DNA from: Mactra quadrangularis
Taxonomy: Eukaryota > Mollusca > Bivalvia > Venerida > Mactridae
DNA: 64,000 nucleotides
Assembly (NCBI GenBank): GCA_025267735.1
Contig: CM046307.1
Span: 33,161,231 to 33,225,230 of the forward strand
Reading direction: 5' to 3'
A program made the position numbers and the translations under genes. Under the pieces are notes generated by a model that did no database searches, was not told the origin of the DNA, and saw only the letters and a program-made list of their open reading frames with translations. Below are positions 5,943-58,685 of the stretch, piece by piece. The first letter of the stretch is position 1, and every line of letters begins with the position of its first letter.

Positions 5943-6018
5943 GGCGATAGTGGAATAAAAAGTTAAAAATTTTGTGTTTTAAACTAGAAAGGTGGCGGCG
6001 AAATTTAAACATAGAACA

Positions 6019-6825
6019 ATGGATGCGACCATGTATGAGGACGGGGCGGGAAGAGAGAGCTCGTTCGGCAATAAACTGAACAGTATGAAACGAAACATGA
6101 CTTTGGACTTTAATAATACGTGTGGAATTTCAAGCTCCAAAAAGCAGAAACTACAGACTGCTTTGTTACAATCACCAGATCTGAATATGTTAAAACTTGC
6201 TTCACCTGAACTGGAAAAAATGATCATACAAGCTAATGGGTTGGTTACAACCACTCCCACACCTACTCAAATAATGTTTCCTAAATTTGTCACTGATGAA
6301 CAGGAAGCTTATGCACAAGGATTTGTAGCTGCATTAGCTGAGTTACATTCAAAGCCAGAATCAGGAGTACAAGACATTGTCAGTAGTGCTTCAATGAATG
6401 ACGCTTTAAAAAACATTTTCACGACAACAACGTCGTTGCCAGGTGGTCTAGTTCCTAGCTCGTTACCATCTAAGTCATTACTTAATCCAACATCACAATC
6501 TATGGTGACAGTTAAAGAAGAACCTCAAACTGTTCCTTGTGGACTTAATTCTCCGCCAATTTCACCAATTGACATGGGAAGTCAAGAAGTGATCAAACTT
6601 GAACGGAAACGCGCTAGAAATAGAATTGCTGCCCGCAAATGTCGCACTCGGAAACTTGAAAGAATTGCGAGACTTGAAGACAAAGTTGCTGACTTGAAAG
6701 GAGTTAATAATGACTTATCTACACAAGCTTCTAAACTAAGAGACGAAGTGTGTAAACTGAAAAAAACAATTATTGAACATGTTAATAGTGGCTGTCAAAT
6801 AATGTCTCATAATTTGTCGATTTGA
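6019..6825 (+). CDS. jun: Transcription factor AP-1 subunit, c-Jun orthologue, single exon
   Basis: Codes for 268 residues without introns, as in other animals. It is a bZIP transcription factor that binds AP-1 sites as a homodimer or with Fos/ATF partners. Residues about 26-71 resemble the JNK-docking and transactivation region, with Ser-Pro at 52-53 and 62-63 and the block LKLASPELE. Thr-Pro sites at 79 and 81 lie in TTTPTPTQ. The block [20 protein letters not shown] follows. VKEEP at 165-169 is a sumoylation-type motif. SPPISPIDM (178-186) matches the phosphorylated segment before the DNA-binding region. The basic region (about 195-213) reads NRIAARKCR, keeping the NxxAAxxCR contacts, then Leu heptads to about 255 and the Jun signature HVNSGCQ (254-260). 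The ATG at 6019 is used; the frame is open upstream to a GTG at 5992 but has no earlier ATG. The protein is shorter than human Jun (331 residues), mainly in the middle. Confidence 0.97.
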
Positions 6826-13428: not shown

Positions 13429-16400
13429 TTAAGGAGTAAAGCTTATCAATGTAGCTGTAGGTACTTCAACTGTTGGCACTACTTTACGACTTAAATCTGG
13501 TGGAGTTCCTAAGAGACTGACTCTCTGAAATAACAAAAAAACTATTATTTGACAAAACAACAAGTAAATCTGTGAGCTAATGCTCACTAGTGATACCCCC
13601 GCCAAAATCTAAAAATATGCGACAAACAGGAAGTAGATGAGCGAGGAGCATGAAATCGCTTTACACCACATGGGACTATAGGATGAAGCAATATGCAAAG
13701 TTTCAGGCTGCTGCATGGTATAGTTGCTGAGAAAACTGTGACGGAAATTTTGTAACGGACGGACGGACGCACGCACACACGCACGCACGCACGGACAAGG
13801 GTAAAACAGTATACCCCCCTCTTCTTCGAAGCGGGGGTATAATTAGATTTACAAACAAGCATTTACAAATGTACCAATATCATAGCAATACAGAAAAGTC
13901 TAAACTACAACTAAGCCAAAACAAATGAACAAAGATAATTTTTTAGATTTGAAAATCTTGAGTTTTCTTTCTAAAATGTATTAACTTAGTTGGTTTCATA
14001 CAAGGCAGCAAAGTAATAGAATCATAAAAAATGGCAACACTTAATTGACATCATCCAGGTAAGAGATTAAACTACTTTCCAATCAATTTTTAATAACCTT
14101 AACTCTAACATAACTGACCTTAAGAGCCATTCATAGAAGAAGCAGTGGTCTGGTGGTAGGACTAGCTATTAGGGATTAATAGGCCCAAGGTTCAAACCCC
14201 ACAAGAGACACTGTAAGGGGGCACCTGCTCGAAGGCAACTTCAATGACCAGGGGTTATTGTACAAAATTGTAAACTTGGCTGAACATGAGTATGGAAGAA
14301 CCCAAACAAGCACAAACTTTTTTTAACAGCAAAGTTGGAACAAGGTCATTAAATTGCTTTAGAGCAGAATATCTAAGGTCCGATTTTAATGAGATTAAAT
14401 GTCGATCTAAGGGTAACTTTAATAAAAGATATAATTTATTCTTTGGAGAAAATTTTCAACTTACCTGTGAACTGAATGATGGGGGTGGTACATTTTCATC
14501 ATTATCATCATTATTAAAATCAAATATGTCATAAGCTGGTGTGGATCTTGTAGTCCTTTTGTTTTCAACTGAAAGAGTCAAAAGTAAAACAAAAATTCAA
14601 CAACAAAAAATACAAAATCATGTTCACAAGAAGTAAGAAGACACAGTAACTCAGTTACATAGGTACCTGCAGTAACAATCTAGTACATTACATTGAATTG
14701 AAATAGTCAAAATATACAAGCAAGATCAAAGTAAATGTAACATATAGGTATGAGGTTAAAGTTAACGAAATCTATCACTCTACATGATGAAAATAAGTCA
14801 CACACTATATTATGAGATTTACTACAAACATTTATGTCAATTCAGACAAACAGAAAATCAAAACATTGTAAAAGATAAAGGTGATTTTGATTAATTGAAA
14901 TGTAAAGAAAACAAAAGTTTACATTATTTAATGATTAATACTGAATCAAATAAAATTTCCATTATATATGAAAAGTCAGCAAATGGTAGTAATCTTATAA
15001 AACTGATCCCCAGATCAAATGATGTATATGTAGTTAAGTACTTGAAACTACCCATTGTGTGTAGCAGTTGGATTGTACTTGCCTAATGATTGATGGGTAT
15101 TTCAAGAAACATTGACGTTCAATATTTACTTATTTAGGCCCACAAACTATAGGGTGAGGGTACAATAAAATTAAAAATATATCTATTTATAGTTCTTATT
15201 TGGAACTTGAATGTCTTGCAGAAAATTTGTTTGTACCAGATGTATCCAAGCAGAACTAAGTTATTTTACACATTGCTAAAAAGTATGCAACACAGATTGA
15301 ATCCTAATGTTATGTGTACACAAAATTGTGTTTCAACTTTTTTCTGCATGGGTTCATCCAGCAATGTTTTTCAGCTGAAAAACTTATCATCTTGAGTTCC
15401 AAATCAAGTTTATTGTATCAAGCTCACCTAATGAACTCCTGTTATATGGAGTATTAGGAAGTGCACATCGTGGTTTAGCAACAGATTTAGGTGATACAAA
15501 CTGTACACTCCTCTTTCTAGATCTACTTCTTTCTGTTGATTTACAGCCCTTTAAACAAGACTGACGTCTCATAACTCGTACTGGTGTCTCAACTGTCATA
15601 AAAATAAATCAATTGTCAAGTAAGTTTTTCTCCCAGTAGATCTCATTAAAATCAGACTACATAATGTCCCATTACATTTACACTACAGTATTGTTAAATT
15701 TAAAGTTTGATTCTTTTGTCAGTGACACATACATTAACTCCATTGATTTAAATACTCACAACAGGCAGTCAGTGGAGTTAATGAATGCGCAACAGATTGA
15801 ATCATTGCAGCAATATTTTAATGCTTTAGCAAGGTTTTAGAATCTGACATCAGATATAAGAATACAGTGTTAACTGAACATTTTAGAACATATATTGACT
15901 AATAGACCTTAGAACTATGAGGGGGATAAATATGAATTGGAGAAAACTTACTTGACTATCAAGGCTAAAAAGCTTGAATATGGTAAATCCCAATTTAAAC
16001 TAATTGATAACAATTAAGAAAACCTAATAGCAGTACTTCAGAAACATCATCCATTAGGACAACAAAATATTTTGCACATAAAATAAATCAAAACAGTCCA
16101 CGGACAGTGTGCTCGACTATTTCAGGTATTAGTATTTGACCTTCATTCCTAACCCCGTTGACATGTGTGAAGTTTCAAGTAAATCCCTTCAGTAGGTTAA
16201 AAAATAAAATGTTGCACCAAAAATTTTAACCAAAGTAATTCTAAGTATTAGAGGGCCATAATCCAGTCAAAATTCTTGCTAGAGTTATGCAACTTTGTAT
16301 TTGGTGTCAATAAGTAGTAGACATGTGTGAGGTTTCAAGTGAATCCCTCCAGTAGTTGCAAAGATAAAATGTTGCACCTAAAAACTTAACCAAGAAATTT

Positions 16401-19400
16401 CTTAGTATAAAAAGGCCATAATTCAGTCCAAATTAATTCAAGAGTTATGTAACTTAGTATTTGACCTCCAATGGTAACCCCGTAGACATGTGTGAAGTTT
16501 CAAGTGAATCCCTTCAGTAGTTGCAAAGAAAAAATGTTGCACCTAAAAACTTAACCAAGAAATTTTTTTTTAAGTATATAACGGCCATAATTCAGTCCAA
16601 ATTCATCCTAGAGTTATGAAACTTGATATTTGAACTCCAATGGTAACCCCTTAAACACAAATAAAGTTTTAAGTGAATCCCTCCAGTACTTGCAAAGATA
16701 TAAAAGATACAACAAGTAAATCTGTGAGCTAATGCTCACTAGTGATACCCCCGCCAAAATCTAAAAATATGCGACAAACAGGAAGTAGATGAGCGAGGAG
16801 CATGAAATCGCTTTACACCACATGGGACTATAGGATGAAGCAATATGCAAAGTTTCAGGCTGCTGCATGGTATAGTTGCTGAGAAAACTGACGGAAATTT
16901 TGTAACGGACGGACGCACACACGCACGGACAAGGGTAAAACAGTATACCCCCCTCTTCTTCGAAGCGGGGGTATAAAAATGTTGCACCTAAAAACTTAAC
17001 CAAGAAGTGTTAGCAGACACACAGCTGAGTAGGATAGCCCCACTATTCTCTGAATAGTCGAGCTAAAAATGAAAACATGAAATAATCTAACAGGGTTGCC
17101 AACAGTTTTGAAATCAGAAAAAATGTGCCTTTTGGCTCACAATTACTACATGAATTTACATATAGTTCATCATTCAATATAAGTTGTAAACTATAATTGC
17201 AAGTGATTATGGGAGGTTATATTCTGCTTATAAGCTGAAGATTGCATTATTTCCTTATATAACAGGCCCAAATCTGAATTTAATCTTTTGACTTTTCTTT
17301 CCACTATTAATTTGATGGGAATAGAATTTCCCAAAATGTACGATTTAAAGCAATTGGCAACTCAGATTAAAATAATCAAATTTTAAATAAAACAAGTAAA
17401 TCTGTGAGCTAATGCTCACTAGTGATACCCCCGCCAAAATCTAAAAATATGCGACAAACAGGAAGTAGATGAGCAAGGAGCATGAAATCGCTTTACACCA
17501 CATGGGACTATCAGATGAAGCAATATGCAAAGTATTAGGCTGCTGCATGTTATAGTTGCTGAGAAAACTGAGACGGAAATTTTGTAACGGACGGACGGAC
17601 CCACACACGGACAAGGGTAAAACAGTATACCCCCCTCTTCTTCGAAGCGGGGGTATAATAAAATCTAATAAAATTGAAGTTAACTAAAATCAATGAAAAC
17701 CTACTTTTATCATTGGAAGTATCAAGAATACTTGGTTGTAAATATTTGGAGAATGATTCATTAGAGACATTACAATCATCGTCATTTTCATCAGCAACAT
17801 CTGAACTGTTGGATGGTTGTAACAATCTATCAAAATCATCACTTGATACTTCAGGTTTTGGTGAATCTGAGACAGTCTCCGTCATACCTAAAGATTGTCT
17901 TGAACGTAAACTTCTCCTGTAAAATATAAGTAGTTTACAAGGTTAAAGTGATGTTCAGTGTGCTTCCATATACATACACCATATAGTACCATAACCCCTG
18001 ATCATTGTAATCACCTTCAGGCAGCCATCCCTCATAGTACCAATTTACAACTGAATGGAGTGGAACAGTAGCAGGTTAATTTCTTGCTCATGGAAAATGG
18101 CAGTACCCCTGGTGGGGATCAAACCCAGGACCAATTCTTATATAAATTATAAGTAGTGTGACTTTTCAGTTTAGACCAAGGCTCCACATTAATATCAAAA
18201 TACATTGCCTGTTTGGACAAGCAGCTATGTATTTTACTTGCCCTAACTTACTTTTTGTAAACAATACCAAGTTGCCAAGAGGTAGTCAGGGGCAATCTGT
18301 CAACACTTAAAGTCAAGTCCTACAGACAACAAAAACATTAACTTGGTAAAAATTTCTTCATGTGGAAACAACTTTTTCAACAAAAACAAAGATTTGTTAA
18401 TTTTTTCGTCTGTACATGTATACCTTTTTGGATTTTCTTTAGCTCTCTTAGAACTTGGTAATGAAGATTCACTTTCTTCAATTTCATCTACTAGTCGTTT
18501 AGGTATAGGAGTTTTTCTGGTACATTCTCTGGTTGGACGAGGTAAAGGTGTTATGTCCTGTAACAGGGGACTGGGCACAGCTGGGAGATAACTCTTCCTT
18601 GTAGGTGTTTTCATGACCAGTTCGGATGAACCAAGTACATCTTTAAGCACTGTTTTCTTCATATTACCATCTTTGTTTGTTGATGATGGTGACTTGGGTT
18701 TATTAGGAGTACCAGCTTTAAAATGAGAAAATCAGTTAATCAAAAGAATAACAGTTGAGATTATGCTCTAATCTATTTATAATTTTGAACATTAAATAAT
18801 AATTTGCTACATGGTATTTCCTGTAAAATCAATTAAAGGATTAACTTATCATATGTATAGTACAATTACTTAGTCTCAAACAAAGATATGTTCACTTGAT
18901 ATGGCCAAGTGGTCACAAAGTTGGACTGGTAATTGTTAGATAGCCAGCTCAACAATCTCTTGAACTTAATAAAAACTGACCCTGTTGTTTCCTTGAGCAA
19001 GAAACTTTATTCTACAAGCTCAGGGACCATAAAGTGAATATGATTACTCCAAGCTAAAGGAACTTGTTTCAAGATCAAGTTAAAATAAACTAGTATAGTA
19101 TAGTAAAGGATATTAAGTTCCATCTTTGTTAAAAAAGAACACATCTATATTTTATTTCACATTATTTTACCTTTATATGCATAAAGCCCTCTACTTCATC
19201 AAGTCTTTATATCAGTACAGTGTCTGTAGTTAAGGAGTGTTCCTCCCCTAGTCAGCTTCAGTCATATACAATCCTTGGTTTCATTGATAAGTCCATATTA
19301 AGGCATATTTGAATATCTTTCTTTTTTTTTCTTTTTTTGTTGGATTTAACATCCAAGCAACACATTGTATTGGCCATATCAAACTCAAGACCCTTCAATC

Positions 19401-41066: not shown

Positions 41067-42229
41067 TCCCAGTAAACCGGACTGTAATTCCGTTAAAATT
41101 TAGCAGTTGTCTCCCTTGTCAACATTTTCAATGTCACGGTCGACATAAATGTGAAGGCCGTGTTGCCGGCTGACCTACGATTGTGTTTGATACTGTTTAT
41201 ATAGTGAATTAGGTATGTTTGATTTAATATATTGATCAAGTCAATTACATACAGAACTTTATTGCAATTTCATTGTGTTAAAGGGTTTAGTTAAAATCCA
41301 TTCATATAATATTCAATGTATTTTGCATTGTGTATGTTAAGATTACTGTGTACTTTTTTTGCTTGTATACTCATAATCTTTACATAATATATTGGCACTT
41401 CAAAAATACTTATACAAGTCGGTGATTATGTACATATAGCTATTGCTTTCACCAAGGACCCTTTTTAACATTTATAGCATATATAATATAGGGTCCTTGC
41501 GTTCACTGAATATGATTTTATTATCAATTAAATTTATGTAAATTGTATATTGGATTATTTGTTTGTATATGGAATCTAAACAACTTATTATATTATTTAT
41601 CAAGTTGACTTTACTTTTTTCTATATTTTTGCCCAGAATTATAATTGTAACCCCATTGTAATAATTAGTGCAAATATATGCCACATCTGATTTATTTCCA
41701 TTTTGATTTTTACCCATGAATTGTTTAACTTAATAGCATCTCAGTTTTCTCTGGTACATGTATGTTAACACTTACACTTTTTCAAACCAAATGAAAGTAG
41801 TAATTAAGGTTTACAGTCCCTTATATTATTCACAGTCAATATTAATTTTGTAAAAATATGATCAAAAGTTACATAACATGATAAATTATATTACCTCCCT
41901 TTCATATGAAAATGTAATAGTTTTAATTGCCCTTATAATGTCTACTTCGTTGTTTTTTTCACATCAAACATGTTGAAAAGTTATGAAAAACTAAGTTCAA
42001 AGAAGAAAAACTTCGTCTAGAATTTTTAACTGCCATAAAACATAGTTTTTTTAGTAAGGGGTTTTACACCATAATTAATATAGTAACCTACTCATGAATT
42101 ATGATGAAAATTATTTTTTAGTCCATATGTATTTTGAACTTATTAATAAGCTCATATAGAACATATCATGAACATAGCTTAAATATTTTTTTCCATCTCT
42201 ATATTTCAGAGCTAGACTATTAGATAGTT

Positions 42230-43459
42230 ATGTCAAGAAAGTTAGAGAAGAGTTGTAATATCACTATATTTGGTGGAGGTAATGGAGCCCATGTGTTATC
42301 TGGCCTGTCTTCTGATGTAGTCAATGCCAATGTTACTGTTGTTGACACATTTCAAGATGAGGCTGAAAGATGGACAAAAGCTATGGCTGAAAATGGTTTT
42401 ACAGTAAAATATGGCCAAGGAAATGATCTTGTTCAGCCTGCAGGAAAACCCAAGTTTACTGTCACCAAAGAAATAGAGAAGAATGTAGTGAATGCCGATG
42501 TTGTTATACTTTGTATGCCAGCTTTCTTACATGAGATGGTTCTTACGTCAGTGGCTCCTCATGTATCTGAAACCTGTCCAATTGTGGGCCTGCCAGGACA
42601 ACCAGGGTTTGAGTATCAAGCATTATATCATCTTAGAGAAAATGGCAAAAAAGGAAGTGTTATGTCAATTGAAACTCTTCCTTGGGCTTGTAGAATCGCC
42701 AAGTATGGTCAGGAGGTTGATGTTATTGGTACAAAAGAATGTATATATTTCTCTCTGGTTGATCAACAAGCCAGTGGCTATGTTGGCGAAGGTTTGGTTA
42801 ACCTCATTCAAACCTTACTTGGCGCAAAACCAGTCCTTAAACGTGAAGAAAATATCATCAAATACACATTTTTGTACCGACCCACTGTTCATCCTCCGCT
42901 CATGTATGCTAAATGGAAGAATTGGGATGGTAAGCCTTTGGATGAAGCACCCTTGTTTTACCAAGGTGCCGATGAGGAGGCTGTGAAGTACTTGGATGGG
43001 GCTACAAATGAAATGATCAAGATAGCCGACTTTCTTCAAACTAAGTACCCAGACATGGACTTTTCTGGCATATCTTCAATGCAAGACTGTTTTATTGGTG
43101 AATATCCGGATCAAATTAAAGATAAGAGCACCTTACTTACATGTTTGAAAACAAACCAAGCTTATGATGGCTTAGTTCACCCTATGAAGAAAACCGAGGA
43201 TGGTAAATTTGTACCAGATTTCAAATATCGCTACTTGATGGAAGACGTTCCGTATGGTTTGTTGATCATCAAGCAGATCGCTGAAATGGCCGATTTCCCA
43301 ACACCCATTATAGATGAAATCATTCTTTGGGCTCAGACTAAACTGGATGCTGAATACCTCAAAGATGGCAAGCTTTGTTTTGTTGACAGAAAGCATGGAA
43401 GAATACCCATGGCATTTGGCATTAAAACCTTGGATGAATATGTTAACTACTGCAAATAA
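42230..43459 (+). CDS. Opine dehydrogenase 1
   Basis: Codes for 409 residues in one exon. Opine dehydrogenases condense pyruvate with an amino acid (arginine, alanine, glycine, taurine or another) and NADH in the cytosol, regenerating NAD+ during anaerobic glycolysis. Seen: a Rossmann motif FGGGNGAH at residues 14-21, the family block LPGQPGFEYQAL (121-132), SIETLPWACR (146-155), and the catalytic-domain block RPTVHPPLMYAKW (217-229). By alignment with the scallop octopine enzyme, whose catalytic residues are His212, Arg324 and Asp329, I assign His221, Arg334 and Asp339, with the same Arg-to-Asp spacing. A clean acceptor TATATTTCAG ends at 42209, so the exon starts at 42210, 20 bases before the ATG. 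The upstream intron lies in the 5' UTR. Amino-acid specificity cannot be read from sequence. Confidence 0.95.
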   Translation: MSRKLEKSCNITIFGGGNGAHVLSGLSSDVVNANVTVVDTFQDEAERWTKAMAENGFTVKYGQGNDLVQPAGKPKFTVTKEIEKNVVNADVVILCMPAFLHEMVLTSVAPHVSETCPIVGLPGQPGFEYQALYHLRENGKKGSVMSIETLPWACRIAKYGQEVDVIGTKECIYFSLVDQQASGYVGEGLVNLIQTLLGAKPVLKREENIIKYTFLYRPTVHPPLMYAKWKNWDGKPLDEAPLFYQGADEEAVKYLDGATNEMIKIADFLQTKYPDMDFSGISSMQDCFIGEYPDQIKDKSTLLTCLKTNQAYDGLVHPMKKTEDGKFVPDFKYRYLMEDVPYGLLIIKQIAEMADFPTPIIDEIILWAQTKLDAEYLKDGKLCFVDRKHGRIPMAFGIKTLDEYVNYCK

Positions 43460-49295: not shown

Positions 49296-49767
49296 TAGGG
49301 GTGTAACAATACGGTAAAAACCGTATTGCAATATATTGCAATATGCAGAACCCGTATTGCAATATATTGCAATACGTACCGGTTTTTCGCTTAGACATGC
49401 AAAGCATTAATTAATGCATGCACCTCGTCCTAATTGGATCAGCGTAACATGCATATGGGTATTTTCAAATGATCTCTTATCAAAATATTTGAATGACAAA
49501 TGTAAAATGGTCTATAAAATTATGTTAGAAAAATGCGTTGTTTGAAACAGAATTTTTTCTTTCAATTGACTAAATGTTTAACCTTTAAAAGAACATTACG
49601 AGTATTTCAAGTATTCAATTCATTTTAACATTTGTTTAAACATTTAACTATCAGATTCTGATACACTTAACTACAAAAACCGGTTTAAGGAAAAATGAAC
49701 CGGTTAAAAACCGTTAGAACTCGTATTGCAATATTAACCGGTATATCGGTTAACCGTTACACCCCTA
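49296..49767 (+). mobile_element. Short hAT-like element with TAGGGGTGTAAC ends
   Basis: The left end TAGGGGTGTAAC and right end GTTACACCCCTA are inverted. Flanking 8-mers ACATATGC and ACATATAT agree at 6 of 8. Internally, the palindrome CGTATTGCAATATATTGCAA repeats near the left end, and ACCGGTT-rich sequence lies near the right. It is non-coding, 472 bp. Confidence 0.8.
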
Positions 49768-49858
49768 ACATATATGCCCTATAAACAGTTGAATGAAATT
49801 TAACAACACAAAGTAACAGTAGTTTTAGTTCTCAAGATCTACACAAACTTTAGATTAT

Positions 49859-51631
49859 TACGGAGCCCCTAAAGTGACATTTTGCAATACTTTTTTTATT
49901 TTCACAACTATTTCGTTTAAATGTAATATTATTTCGTTTTTACGAAATATTATTTCGTTTTAACGAAATATCATTTCGTTTATTCGAAATATTATTTCGA
50001 TTAAACGAAATAATATTACGTTTTTTCGAAATAATTATTTCGATTTAACGAAATAATATTATTTCGTTAAATCGAAATAATTATTACGTTTTTTCGAAAT
50101 AATTATTTCGTTTTATCGAAATATTATTTCGTTTAAACGAAATATTATTTCGTTCAAACGTAATATTATTTCGTTTAAACGTAATATTATTTCGTTAAAT
50201 CGAAATAATTATTTCGATTTTTCGAAATAATTATTTCGTTTTTTCGAAATAATATTATTTCGTTTTTTCGAAATAATTATTTCGTTTTTTCGAAATAATT
50301 ATTTCGAAAAAACGAAATAATCATTTCGAAAATTCGAAATATTATTTCGTAAAAACGAAATAATATTTCGATAAAACGAAATAATTATATCGAAAAAACG
50401 TAATAATTATTTCGAAAAATCGAAATAATATTATTTAGAAACAAGAGCTCCGCTGGGCGGGGCATTATACGCCCGTGTGCAGTCCATGCTGTGTTCTATC
50501 TCATATGAATTCCCTGTGACCTTGACCAATGACCCCGGGATCTCAGAATAGGTCCCACCCTTAACTGGAGGGCTATCCAAAGCAAAGATTTTGAGAACCT
50601 AGGTACAAACATGGTTGAGTTATCACCGGACAATGTTTTTCAATATGATGCCCCTGTGACCTTGACCTTTGACCCAGGGGTCCCAAAATCAATAGGGCAT
50701 ATCCTTGACACATGGGCTACTCTCACATAAAATTTCGTGAACCTAGGTACATTGGTGGTTCAGTTATTGTCCGGACAAAGTTTTTCAAAATGATGCCACT
50801 GTGACCTTGACCTTTGAACTTGGGGCCCAAAAACATATAGGGCACATCCTTGACGCATGGGCTACCTTCACATAAAATTTGGTGAACCTGGGTACAGTCG
50901 TTGTTGAGTTATCATCCGGACAAGGTTTTTCAATATGATGCCCCTGTGACCTTGACCTTTGACCCAGGGGCCCCAAAACCATTTGGGAACATCCTTGATA
51001 CAAGGGCTACTCTTACATAAAATTTGGTGAACCTAGGTACATTGGTGGTTCAGTTATTGTCCGGACAAGTTTTACCTATTTTAAGTCCCAGTGACCTTGA
51101 CCTTTGACCCTGGGGTCTCAAAATCATTAGGGAACCTCCTCCACCCAAGGGCTATCCACACATAAAATTTGAGGAACCTAGGTGCATCCTTTCTTGAGTT
51201 ATCATCCGGACAAGCAATTGTCCACGGACAGACGGACAGACGGACAACAGCATAACATAATACGACCGTTTTTTCAAAACGGGCGTATAAAAACGAAATA
51301 ATTATTTCGAAAAATCGAAATAATATTACGTTTTAACGAAATAATATTTCGTTTAAATGCAATAATATTTTAATAAAACGAAATAATTATTTCGAAAAAA
51401 CGCAATAATATTTTGATAAAACGAAATAATTATTTCGAAAAAAACGTAATAATTATTTCGATAAAACGAAATAATATTATTTCGTTAAATCGAAATAATT
51501 ATTTCGAAAAAACGTAATATTATTTCGTTAAATCGAAATAATATTTCGAATAAACGAAATAATATTACGTTTAAACGAAATATTTGTGATAATAAAAAAG
51601 TATTTCAAAATGTCACTTTAGGGGCTCCGTA
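49859..51631. mobile_element. TIR element filled with a CpG-phased palindromic A/T array
   Basis: The ends TACGGAGCCCCTAAAGTGAC (49859) and its inverse (ending 51631) continue for roughly 35 bp of inverted match. GATTAT flanks both sides (49853-49858 and 51632-51637). The interior (49908-50434 and 51291-51583) is built of TTTCG, 5-6 A/T bases, CGAAA, then AT-only spacers such as TAATTAT. A second element (50440-51290) is inserted in the middle. A decayed relative lies at 56526-57088. Confidence 0.85.
50440..51290 (+). mobile_element. Element with ATACGCCCG ends and five ~145-bp internal units
   Basis: Starts AACAAGAGCTCC and ATACGCCCG. It ends with ACGGACAGACGGACAGACGG and a terminal hairpin, ACCGTTTTTTCAAAACGGG. 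Five tandem units anchor on TGACCTTGACC at 50517, 50657, 50802, 50947 and 51092 (spacing 140, 145, 145 and 145). Its architecture matches family M. It is non-coding and nested in the CpG-phased element. Confidence 0.85.
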
Positions 51632-51831
51632 GATTATACAATCAGTGCCAGTTCATTACTTTTTATACTATACATATATTTATTTGATATATTGTATTAA
51701 ATAAACAGAGTTGGTATGAAGTAGGGTTATACAGTATTATCAACTTTATCTTATAACTACTAGGTCAGAACAATTTCAAGTTGTTACACTTAAGTTGACT
51801 TGTGATTTCATGTACATTCAATCATGTCAAC

Positions 51832-56100: not shown

Positions 56101-56268
56101 ACAGAATAACAAATGAGGTATCAGTATTTTGCAAAAAAAAAACCTTAAAATATAAAAACTAGGAATACTAGGAGCCTTTTGGCAAATACTAGGAAAAAGT
56201 AGGAACCCACTAAAAAAACTAGGAAAAAGTAGGAAAACTAGGAAAAACTAGGAACGCCGGGAAGCCTG
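53181..56268 (+). mobile_element. TIR DNA transposon with 6-bp target duplication, family J
   Basis: The ends are CAGGCTTCCC and GGGAAGCCTG, with TATTAT exactly on both sides (53175-53180 and 56269-56274). Many AACTAGGAAAAA-type subterminal repeats occur at both ends on the same strand. The 3.1-kb interior has no transposase frame and carries a nested TA element at 55218-55593. Confidence 0.85.
55218..55593 (+). mobile_element. Tc1/mariner-type MITE with 26-bp perfect TIR
   Basis: The left end CAGTACCCACCAAAAGTTTG continues to a perfect 26-bp inverted match at 55568-55593. TA flanks both ends (55216-55217 and 55594-55595). It is 376 bp and non-coding. The terminal sequence type, CAGT...AAAAGTTTGGA, is that of Tc1-like elements. 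Confidence 0.9.
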
Positions 56269-56525
56269 TATTATGTATATAAACGGTATGTTTGAAAATC
56301 AAAGGGAGGTAACATGACAATTCCCAGTGATTCAATCACAATCAGTACCATAACCACAAGACATTAAATGACTTAAGAAGTGTTCAGCTAAGGAGAAGAT
56401 GCCTAACAGTAGTATAGCCAACATATGTTGTGGTACCCAGCTGTTTTGTCTATTCTATTGATAGTAATTTTACCATTCTTACTGCAATCTAAGTCCCACT
56501 GCAGCAGCTTTTAACAACTTCTAAG

Positions 56526-57088
56526 TAGCCCCTAAAGTGACATTTTGAAATACTTTTTTTTATTTTCACAAATATTTCATTAAAAATTATTACATTGTAT
56601 TTGTTTTTTTTTCAAAATGATAATTAAATTTTTTTGAATTTACGAAATATTATTTCATTTTTCCAATTATAATTTCATTTTTACAAAATAATTTTACATT
56701 TTTTTAAACATATTTTTTTGTTCTTAGTTTTTAGAAATATCATTTGGAATAAATGTAAAAATCATTTTGATTAAATGTAAAAAAATGTAAAAATATGCGA
56801 CAAACAGGAAGTAGATGAGCAAGGAGCATGAAATCGCTTTACACCACATGGGACTATGAGATGAAGCAATATGCAAAGTATTAGGCTGCTGCATGTTATA
56901 GTTGCTGAGAAAACTGCAACGGAAATTTTGTAACGGACGGACAGACAGACAAGGGTAAAACAGTATACCCCCCTCTTCTTCGAAGCGGGGTATAATTACT
57001 TTATTTAAACAAAATAATATTTCCTTTAAACAAAATAATTGTGAAAATAAAAAAAATATTTCAAAATGTCACTTTAAGGAGCTCCATA
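56526..57088. mobile_element. Decayed relative of the CpG-phased palindromic element
   Basis: The left end TAGCCCCTAAAGTGACATTT and the right end AAATGTCACTTTAAGGAGCT match the ends at 49859 and 51631. Flanking 6-mers TCTAAG and CCTAAG differ by one base. The interior still shows ATTATTTCATTTTT-like units, but the CpGs have become CA or TG. A 5'-truncated family M copy (56787-56995) is inserted. Confidence 0.75.
56787..56995 (+). mobile_element. Family M short element, copy 5 (5' truncated)
   Basis: Lacks the first ~50 bases, including AACAAGTAAATC and ATACCCCCGCC, and begins at AAAAATATGCGAC. The 3' hairpin is present but has one G fewer (GCGGGGTAT). Confidence 0.8.
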
Positions 57089-57276: not shown

Positions 57277-57399
57277 TCAGTGGTGCATACATTCACCCTG
57301 TTGATTTGAATACTCACTACAGTATTTCTATACTCAGTATCGATGTACATGTAATTAGATTTAAATCTGGGAGTTGATGTATGTGCCACTGACAGTTGA
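57277..57399. repeat. Hairpin MITE directly before opine dehydrogenase 2
   Basis: CAGTCAGTGGTGCATACATT on the left faces GATGTATGTGCCACTGACAG on the right, with further pairing of TTGATTTGAATAC against GATTTAAATC. It ends about 33 bp before the splice acceptor of the coding exon. Confidence 0.7.
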
Positions 57400-57452
57400 A
57401 CAATATAATTTCTAATTCACTCTCTTTTCAAGGAAGAGTACTAGACAGAGAG

Positions 57453-58685
57453 ATGAGAAGCTTGATTGAGAAACTAAATATCACGATATGTGGTGGAGGA
57501 AATGGTGCTCATACTATTGCTGGTATATCATCATTAGTTAAGAATGCAAATGTAACTGTGGTAACAATATATGAAGATGAGGCAGAGAGATGGGCGGAGT
57601 CAATTGGCAGGAATGGATTTGAAGTAAAGTTTAAAGGTGATAAAAAGATAACGGTAGCTCCTGAAGATGTAAAATTTAAAGTTACCAAGGATGTTAGATC
57701 TGTCATACCAGAATCTGATCTTGTGATTATTTGTGTTCCAGCTTATACACATAGTATATACATGAATTTGATATCATCTTATTTGAACAATAATTGTCCA
57801 GTTGTTGGAATGCCAGGACAACCTGGCTTCGAGTATGAAGCTTTGACCATTCTCAAGGAACATGGTAAGACCAACGCAATCATGTCCATAGAAACTATGC
57901 CATGGGCATGTCGTATTATCAAGTATGGTGAAGTGGTAGAAGTCCTTGGAACCAAAGATGAAGTATGTTATACATTGGTGGATAAGCTAGGAGGTGGGAC
58001 TAACGTTGGCCAATCAAAGATTGAAGAAGTAATGCAGACTTTGTTAGGACCAAAGCCAGTTCTTTCAAGAATGGAGAATATTCTGAAGTATACATTTCTG
58101 TGCAGACCAACTATTCATCCACCAATAATGTATGCAAAGTGGAAATCATGGGATGGTGTACCCTTGGACACACCGCCCCTTTTTTATCAAGGTGTTGACG
58201 AAGAAGCAGTCAGGTACCTAGATGGGTTAACAGATGAAGTGTCCCAGACAGCTGTAGCTCTTGACAACATCTTTCCAGGGTTAGGGTTCTCTGGTATTTC
58301 TACAATGAAGGAATGGTTAATAGATCATTACTCAGACCAGATCACTGATAAGAGTTCATTACTAACTTGCCTAAAAACTAACAGTGCCTATGATGGCCTA
58401 GTTCATCCAATGACCAAAACATTGGATGGAAAGTTTATCCCAGATTTTCAATATCGTTACACCCGTGAAGATGTACCCTATGGTCTGATAGTACTAAGAC
58501 AAATAGCAAGTATGGTAGATGTTTCCACACCCATCATAGACGAGATTATTAAATGGGCTGAGACTAAACTTGGTACACAATATTTGAAGGATGGTAAACT
58601 GTGTAAAATAGATAGAAGTCAGGGAAGACTGCCATTAACTTATGGTATCTCAACAATACAACAATTCTTTGATTTTTTCAAATAG
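57453..58685 (+). CDS. Opine dehydrogenase 2
   Basis: Codes for 410 residues in one exon, clearly paralogous to the enzyme at 42230 and similar along its full length, with about one-residue offset. Seen: CGGGNGAH (13-20), MPGQPGFEYEAL (120-131), SIETMPWACR (145-154), RPTIHPPIMYAKW (218-230) with presumed catalytic His222, then Arg335 and Asp340. The frame is open upstream to a TTG at 57396, but those codons belong to the intron: the pyrimidine-rich acceptor CTCTTTTCAAG ends at 57432, and the ATG at 57453 gives a length equal to the paralogue. Both genes therefore share a 5' UTR intron ending ~20 bases before the ATG. After the second Rossmann strand, gene 1 has VVDTFQDEAE and gene 2 has VVTIYEDEAE, so cofactor or substrate preference may differ. 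Substrate is unknown. Confidence 0.95.
   Translation: MRSLIEKLNITICGGGNGAHTIAGISSLVKNANVTVVTIYEDEAERWAESIGRNGFEVKFKGDKKITVAPEDVKFKVTKDVRSVIPESDLVIICVPAYTHSIYMNLISSYLNNNCPVVGMPGQPGFEYEALTILKEHGKTNAIMSIETMPWACRIIKYGEVVEVLGTKDEVCYTLVDKLGGGTNVGQSKIEEVMQTLLGPKPVLSRMENILKYTFLCRPTIHPPIMYAKWKSWDGVPLDTPPLFYQGVDEEAVRYLDGLTDEVSQTAVALDNIFPGLGFSGISTMKEWLIDHYSDQITDKSSLLTCLKTNSAYDGLVHPMTKTLDGKFIPDFQYRYTREDVPYGLIVLRQIASMVDVSTPIIDEIIKWAETKLGTQYLKDGKLCKIDRSQGRLPLTYGISTIQQFFDFFK

What the first reader, a model, noticed from the sequence alone, without database searches (positions are those of the whole stretch)
49908..51583. A/T-only palindromic array with CpGs at fixed phase
Two blocks (49908-50434 and 51291-51583) consist almost only of A and T, except for CpG dinucleotides placed in a repeating TTTCG-(5-6 A/T)-CGAAA frame separated by AT-only spacers. 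The array is neither a simple satellite nor a microsatellite: spacers vary freely (TAAT, TAATAT, TAATTAT), but symmetry and CpG spacing are kept. Nearly every unit is itself a hairpin. This looks like selection or copying of structure rather than of sequence. Possible roles are a transposase-binding array, a methylation-sensitive platform or a replication-slippage product.
Basis: partly seen in the sequence, partly recalled or inferred. Interest (0 to 1): 0.75.

Follow-up and report, generated by a model that had tools for sequence, protein, structure and literature searches.

The report
Palindromic clam transposon with CpG lattice
The odd A/T-and-CpG stretch is the body of a small clam "jumping gene" built almost wholly of repeated palindromes, later split by a second mobile element; its fixed CpG spacing may be a landing array for the enzyme that moves it.

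Summary
The pattern is real. Its two blocks are one array, split by an 849-bp insert (50442-51290) built like a bivalve HINE (non-autonomous Helentron). With the flanks joined, the lattice has 38 CG-W6-CG units (37 of 38 cores 6 nt; the joint is set within a run of A), spacers of 11, 12 or 14 nt, and 71 of 76 sites still CG. The array fills a 924-bp element with ends TACGG...CCGTA and an exact 6-bp target duplication, GATTAT; TA..TA ends plus 6-bp duplications are the published marks of IS3EU/GingerRoot. The element is one imperfect giant palindrome with its dyad near 50341. A second copy about 5 kb downstream has the same ends and a CpG-decayed interior. One gene points to a mactrid clam. Best reading: a non-autonomous foldback transposon whose units spread by palindrome-driven amplification, with the CG-6-CG module kept as a repeated transposase-binding site. 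The anatomy is shown; the binding role is inferred. The own-genome search did not complete (8 tries), so copy number and autonomous partner are unknown. New variant of a known kind.

The parts
49853..49858 (+). left target site duplication GATTAT
   Evidence: exact 6-bp match to 51632-51637; 0.0006 for one random pair of 6-mers in the window
49859..49910 (+). left terminal inverted repeat, unique end sequence starting TACGGAGCCCCTAAAGTGAC
49911..50441 (+). left part of the CG lattice array: TTTCG-W6-CGAAA units with 11/12/14-nt A/T spacers
   Evidence: lattice parse, TRF period 21
50335..50349 (.). approximate dyad centre of the whole element (about 50341)
   Evidence: centres of pairs spanning over 400 nt in the fold of the joined element, median 482.5 of 924; mirror of the spacer series at offset -2
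50442..51290 (+). 849-bp HINE/Helentron-like insertion inside an A6 core; no target duplication needed; edges uncertain by up to 2 A
   Evidence: empty site; tandem repeats; subterminal inverted repeats
50465..50476 (+). left subterminal inverted repeat TTATACGCCCGT of the insert
50588..51214 (+). 145-bp tandem repeats of the insert (GTGACCTTGACCTTTGACC motif)
51279..51290 (+). right subterminal inverted repeat ACGGGCGTATAA of the insert; overlaps a 3' hairpin CCGTTTT-TTC-AAAACGG
   Evidence: hairpin read directly from the sequence
51291..51580 (+). right part of the CG lattice array
51581..51631 (-). right terminal inverted repeat, ends GGGGCTCCGTA
51632..51637 (+). right target site duplication GATTAT
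56522..57088 (+). second copy: same ends, CpG-decayed array, its own HINE-like insert (about 56797-56995, edges set by eye, left edge unclear)

Best explanation
A non-autonomous, foldback-type DNA transposon with IS3EU/GingerRoot-type ends, in a mactrid-like clam. Shown: the two blocks are one 38-unit array between terminal inverted repeats of about 50 bp, the element is a giant imperfect palindrome, it has a 6-bp target duplication, and a HINE-like element later landed in one A6 core. Inferred: units were multiplied and mirrored by template switching, unequal exchange or conversion between palindromic units. While the family was mobile, purifying selection kept the rigid CG-W6-CG module (8-bp CG step) as a repeated dimeric binding site for a transposase supplied in trans; W6 and spacers could change almost only between A and T. 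After insertion the CpGs of a stranded copy decay by deamination, as in the second copy.
For: Ends and TSD; superfamily marks as printed in PMC10045372 (passages seen). One array: both half-units are present at the insert's edges and, with the joint set in the A run, CG steps of 16 and 8 result. Mirror order: spacer-length series matches its reverse in 29 of 35 positions (permutation p 0.0044, 5000); self-complementarity 820 matches in 924 (0.887) against unit-order shuffles, mean 0.826, maximum 0.851 of 200; mirrored cores identical in 8 of 18 pairs (0 of 3000 permutations reach this). Constraint: of the minority core letters 78 are A/T and 1 is G/C (37 six-nt cores), yet 71 of 76 sites keep CG, in a window with CpG o/e 0.558 and next to a copy whose left array has 1 CG, 11 TG and 11 CA. 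Core length 6 in 37 of 38, spacers in three lengths. Precedents: Galileo tandem repeats in long TIRs bind the THAP domain (PMC3688188, passages); maize Ac subterminal AAACGG repeats bind transposase cooperatively (PMC3260210, passages).
Against: No transposase was found or tested; the autonomous partner is unknown. Units are related by amplification, so the 38 are not independent, and a recently amplified array also keeps its CpGs. 15 of 38 units have imperfect arms. Unit centres are not phase-locked to 10.5 bp (resultant 0.09; 0.74 at 10.9 bp, about half the mean pitch of 21.76 bp). The lattice path favours these steps by its scoring. In the second copy's left array lags 8, 13, 14, 16 and 21 are not above chance (p 0.26, 0.25, 0.94, 0.94, 0.46); only lag 22 is (p 0.02, one of six tested). 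Its TSD is doubtful (5 of 6, and needs a 4-bp loss in the TIR).
Confidence: 0.6

Rival explanations
1. The array is a passive by-product. A palindromic unit inside a MITE was amplified by replication template switching, unequal exchange and arm-to-arm conversion; CpGs are intact only because the amplification is recent. No protein reads the lattice.
For: Mirror unit order and an 8-9-unit higher-order period (best match 0.68 at lag 9, permutation p 0.029; TRF 174-bp period) point to recombination-driven copying. A stem-loop route from MITEs to tandem repeats is described in PMC8268682 (passage seen). Inversion of a palindromic unit turns T-rich cores into A-rich ones without touching CG.
Against: Core variants differ by more than inversion (11 six-nt core classes up to reverse complement). 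The excess of A/T over G/C variants (78 to 1) with CpGs intact does not look like a point-mutation spectrum. Poly-A/T cores hardly change length while spacers do.
Confidence: 0.35
2. The array works through DNA structure: a palindromic AT-rich repeat that extrudes cruciforms, favouring strand breaks, rearrangement and landing of other elements. (Not exclusive of the others.)
For: Strong fold (z -22.45); the joined element folds largely as one long hairpin, 230 of 417 pairs spanning over 400 nt; both of the 2 copies seen carry a HINE-like insert. Human PATRRs as precedent (PMC4940405, PMC3197554; abstracts in the listing).
Against: Structure alone does not require CG at fixed 8-bp steps. HINEs prefer T-rich sites anyway (PMC7492417, passages), so insertion needs no cruciform. 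Only two copies; no in vivo data.
Confidence: 0.15
3. The CpG lattice is a methylation-sensitive switch: methylation of the dense CpGs blocks the transposase and silences the element. (Not exclusive of the best explanation.)
For: CpG o/e 10.2 in the left block against 0.558 in the window; the second copy has mostly TG and CA where CpGs are expected, as after germline methylation. [quoted passage not shown]
Against: No methylation data. Only 3 of 76 sites of copy 1 are TG. Decay in the second copy shows CpG loss after, not during, its active life.
Confidence: 0.12

Closest known systems
IS3EU/GingerRoot DNA transposons (PMC10045372, passages seen)
   Same: TA..TA termini and a 6-bp target duplication in copy 1.
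   Different: No transposase in the element (924 bp, array and ends only); placement rests on ends and TSD. A palindromic CpG lattice is not mentioned in the passages seen.
Foldback-like elements: Galileo (PMC3688188) and Tetris (PMC4079207); passages seen
   Same: Long inverted repeats made of tandem units; Galileo's repeats hold extra transposase-binding sites.
   Different: Galileo belongs to the P superfamily; Tetris was placed in Mutator by 8-10 bp TSDs. Here the units are 21-24 bp palindromes that fill the element, with no middle domain apart from the later insert.
Maize Ac/Ds subterminal AAACGG repeats (PMC3260210, passages seen)
   Same: Works-like comparison only: several short CpG-bearing sites near the ends, bound cooperatively by transposase.
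   Different: A different family (hAT, recalled) with 11-bp TIRs; hexamers near the ends, not a rigid palindromic lattice.
Cg_HINE non-autonomous Helentrons of oyster (PMC7492417, passages seen)
   Same: For the insert: subterminal inverted repeats, satellite-like tandem array, GTCC/GGAC-type microsatellite, 3' palindrome, TT/AA site without TSD.
   Different: 145-bp repeat not compared with theirs. Their passage puts the microsatellite in the left flank; here it lies beside the hairpin end.
C. gigas satellites annotated DNA/IS3EU: CgiSat35 (690 bp) and CgiSat47 (129 bp) (PMC8268682, table passage seen)
   Same: Tandem repeats tied to IS3EU elements in a bivalve.
   Different: Their sequences were not seen; no lattice comparison possible.
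Palindromic AT-rich repeats (PATRR) of the human t(11;22) (PMC3197554, PMC4940405; listing abstracts)
   Same: Works-like: A/T-rich palindromes with cruciform-forming potential.
   Different: No transposon or CpG lattice is mentioned in the parts of the abstracts seen.

Membership tests
IS3EU/GingerRoot superfamily | TA..TA termini | tested here: met
   TACGG...CCGTA in copy 1
IS3EU/GingerRoot superfamily | 6-bp target site duplication | tested here: met
   GATTAT on both sides of copy 1. A 7-bp reading (AGATTAT, with the right end one base shorter) is not excluded. Copy 2: TCTAAG/CCTAAG, 5 of 6, inconclusive
IS3EU/GingerRoot superfamily | IS3-like DDE transposase in the autonomous partner | not testable with these tools
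   longest stop-to-stop frame over the element is 83 aa; own-genome search unanswered
Foldback-type element (structural class) | long inverted repeats composed of tandem subunits, able to fold back | tested here: met
Foldback-type element (structural class) | mobility shown by TSD or by several copies | tested here: met
   exact TSD of copy 1; second copy
HINE/Helentron non-autonomous (insert) | subterminal inverted repeats and 3' palindrome | tested here: met
   12-nt TTATACGCCCGT / ACGGGCGTATAA; 3' hairpin read from the sequence printed
HINE/Helentron non-autonomous (insert) | insertion at TT without TSD | tested here: inconclusive
   consistent with AAA^AAA and no TSD, but the joint lies in a run of A; a 1-2 bp duplication cannot be excluded
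HINE/Helentron non-autonomous (insert) | microsatellite in the left flank, as reported for several Cg_HINEs (common, not defining) | tested here: not met
   here the GGACAGAC repeat is near the right (hairpin) end
HINE/Helentron non-autonomous (insert) | shared ends with an autonomous Rep/helicase element | not testable with these tools
Ordinary microsatellite or satellite | one unit repeated, without element borders | tested here: not met
   TIRs and TSD, mirrored unit order

The most novel reading that the evidence does not exclude
An IS3EU-type transposon family in clams that has turned its whole body into a 38-site palindromic operator array. A rigid CG-6-CG dimer site is kept by selection while nearly everything between is free to drift only as A or T; the CpGs make binding, and so mobility, sensitive to host methylation.
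Probability: 0.25. Interest if true: 0.62.

Novelty: new variant of a known kind. Interest (0 to 1): 0.42.

Why it matters
Why some transposons grow long, internally repeated inverted arms is unsettled; among the foldback-type elements in the papers I looked into, only Galileo came with binding data. Here the repeat unit shows which positions vary (A/T core and spacers) and which hardly do (CG and the 8-bp step), so a predicted binding site can be tested directly. A fresh and a decayed copy lie side by side, a natural record of CpG loss. If the superfamily holds, foldback forms arose in one more lineage.

Tried and rejected
Rejected: plain satellite or microsatellite (element borders and mirror order); two separate arrays (empty site); Polinton as owner of the 6-bp TSD (its ends start AG, recalled, not TA); protein-coding function (longest frame 83 aa; its 82-aa translation had no Pfam match); known RNA (0 Rfam matches at gathering score in the window).

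Led nowhere: exact pattern scans for the TIR and for a two-unit lattice in viral contigs and genome contigs gave 0 each, no surprise for an animal element since genome contigs holds only bacteria and archaea. Text searches of papers for end or array letters listed 15 and 3 papers, unrelated by title. Paper searches on foldback/bivalve (37 papers, 20 listed), IS3EU with TSD (9), IS3EU with bivalve (3), GingerRoot (4) and foldback/palindromic/CpG/mollusc (1) showed no description of this array in the listings or in the passages I opened; no paper was read whole and supplements were not open to me. IS3EU is not named in the main text of PMC10294476 (find). Strict 10.5-bp phasing over the array: not supported.

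Full report
Observation. The two A/T-only blocks with CpGs at fixed phase are present where stated. In block 1 successive CpG distances are 8 (23 times), 13 (10), 14 (10), 16 (2) and 21 (1). In block 2 they are 8 (9), 13 (5), 14 (5), and one each of 9, 16, 21 and 29. Autocorrelation exceeds all 2000 shuffles in both blocks, widely in block 1 (0.441 against 0.232) and narrowly in block 2 (0.371 against 0.366).

Element borders. A third place, 56522-56541, has 2 mismatches. The 100 shuffles give none. The flanks share GATTAT exactly, directly outside TA...TA. [quoted passage not shown] The element is placed there by ends and TSD only.

The gap is an insertion. 50442-51290 carries 145-bp tandem repeats, a GGACAGAC-type microsatellite, 12-nt subterminal inverted repeats (50465-50476 with 51279-51290) and a 3' hairpin read from the sequence. 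Subterminal inverted repeats, an embedded tandem array and a 3' palindrome are the parts named for HINE elements in PMC7492417 (passages seen), which also reports TT insertion sites and no TSD; it puts the microsatellite in the left flank, whereas here it is near the right end. Joining the flanks gives TTTAG-AAAAAA-CGAAA, a normal unit but for one changed base (CG to AG), with CG steps of 16 before and 8 across the joint. The joint lies in a run of A: 3 on the left and 5 on the right. I gave two of these to the insert, which makes the core 6; other choices make it 7 or 8. Two things favour this choice: the 12-nt subterminal repeat includes both As, and the second copy's insert also ends GTATAA (seen by eye). 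A duplication of 1-2 A cannot be excluded.

Lattice. In the joined 924-bp element a path of alternating core and spacer steps has 76 sites: 71 CG, 3 TG, 1 AG, 1 TA. There are 38 cores (37 of 6 nt, the joint core among them, and one of 7) and 37 spacers (18 of 11, 15 of 12, 4 of 14 nt). G or C occurs in 1 of 229 core letters and 4 of 434 spacer letters. The path was found by dynamic programming that favours these steps, so the step counts lean towards the lattice; the raw CpG distances do not depend on it. By column, 78 minority core letters are A/T and 1 is G/C; spacers differ from their nearest form by 11 A/T and 4 G/C letters.

Symmetry. A gapped alignment of the element to its reverse complement has 820 matches over 924 bp. 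Any array of such units would score high, so the control shuffles unit order: mean 0.826, maximum 0.851 of 200, against 0.887. The series of spacer lengths matches its own reverse at 29 of 35 places (p 0.0044 by 5000 permutations, best offset taken in each). Mirrored cores are identical in 8 of 18 pairs at the best centre (0 of 3000 permutations reached it). A DNA fold of the joined element puts 230 of 417 pairs at spans over 400 nt, median centre near 50341; 38 pairs span under 60. The higher-order period of 8-9 units is weaker (p 0.029).

Second copy. 56522-57088, about 5 kb downstream, has the same ends. Its left part aligns to the element with 217 matches in 270 aligned positions and its right end with 80 in 98; beyond the first 60 bases or so the left alignment needs many gaps. 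Its left array (56570-56797, borders set by eye, 228 bp) holds 29 C/G letters, and CG+TG+CA dinucleotides number 23 (1, 11, 11) against 13.7 in letter shuffles (p 0.0004). The short right part (56996-57042) holds 6 C/G letters with 0 CG, 1 TG and 2 CA. Lags 8, 13, 14, 16 and 21 are not above chance in the left part; lag 22 is weakly so (p 0.02, one of six). This fits a CpG lattice blurred by deamination and indels, but the lattice itself is not proven there. Its insert has a GGACGGACAGAC microsatellite and a 3' hairpin (TATACCCC at 56964 with its complement at 56987); no tandem array was seen in it. Two of the two copies seen thus carry a HINE-like insert, too few to call a hot spot.

Host. 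A frame at 57450-58682 is 89% identical over its whole length to a Mactra antiquata protein; next come an unnamed source at 77% and a Ruditapes philippinarum opine dehydrogenase at 66%. Pfam names Octopine_DH in two frames and Jun in another. A mactrid clam is likely from this one gene; the species is not established.

Mechanism. Shown: a mobile palindromic element, an insertion within one unit, and a decayed sister copy. Inferred: why the lattice exists. The sharpest clue is the contrast between CpGs that are kept and A/T positions that change almost only between A and T, and between a rigid 8-bp step and flexible spacers. In a transposon this fits a repeated dimeric binding site. Galileo (PMC3688188) and Ac (PMC3260210) give precedents for repeated transposase sites in or near the ends (passages). 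Recent amplification of an already diverse set of units is the main rival: it explains intact CpGs without selection, and the units are not independent witnesses. More copies would decide, and the tool that could fetch them did not answer.

Verdict. Real, well ordered, and mostly explained as transposon anatomy; the function of the CpG lattice is open but directly testable.

Noticed in passing
49296-49767: A neighbouring MITE-like element with ends TAGGGGTGTAAC...GTTACACCCCTA, flanked by similar ACATATGC / ACATATATGC; hAT-like by recalled motif only.
   Followed up: partly
42224-43456 and 57393-58682: Two opine (octopine) dehydrogenase genes in the same orientation, about 14 kb between them, with both palindromic elements in that interval.
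   Followed up: partly
5983-6822: Single-frame Jun transcription factor gene (Pfam Jun and bZIP).
   Followed up: no
16129-16700: Tandem repeat of about 160 bp, 3.5 copies, perhaps another HINE-type core.
   Followed up: no
56184-56254: AAAAACTAGG-type short tandem repeat just upstream of the second copy.
   Followed up: no
50442-51290 and about 56797-56995: Both copies of the element carry a HINE-like insert in the array; possible preferred landing site, n = 2.
   Followed up: partly
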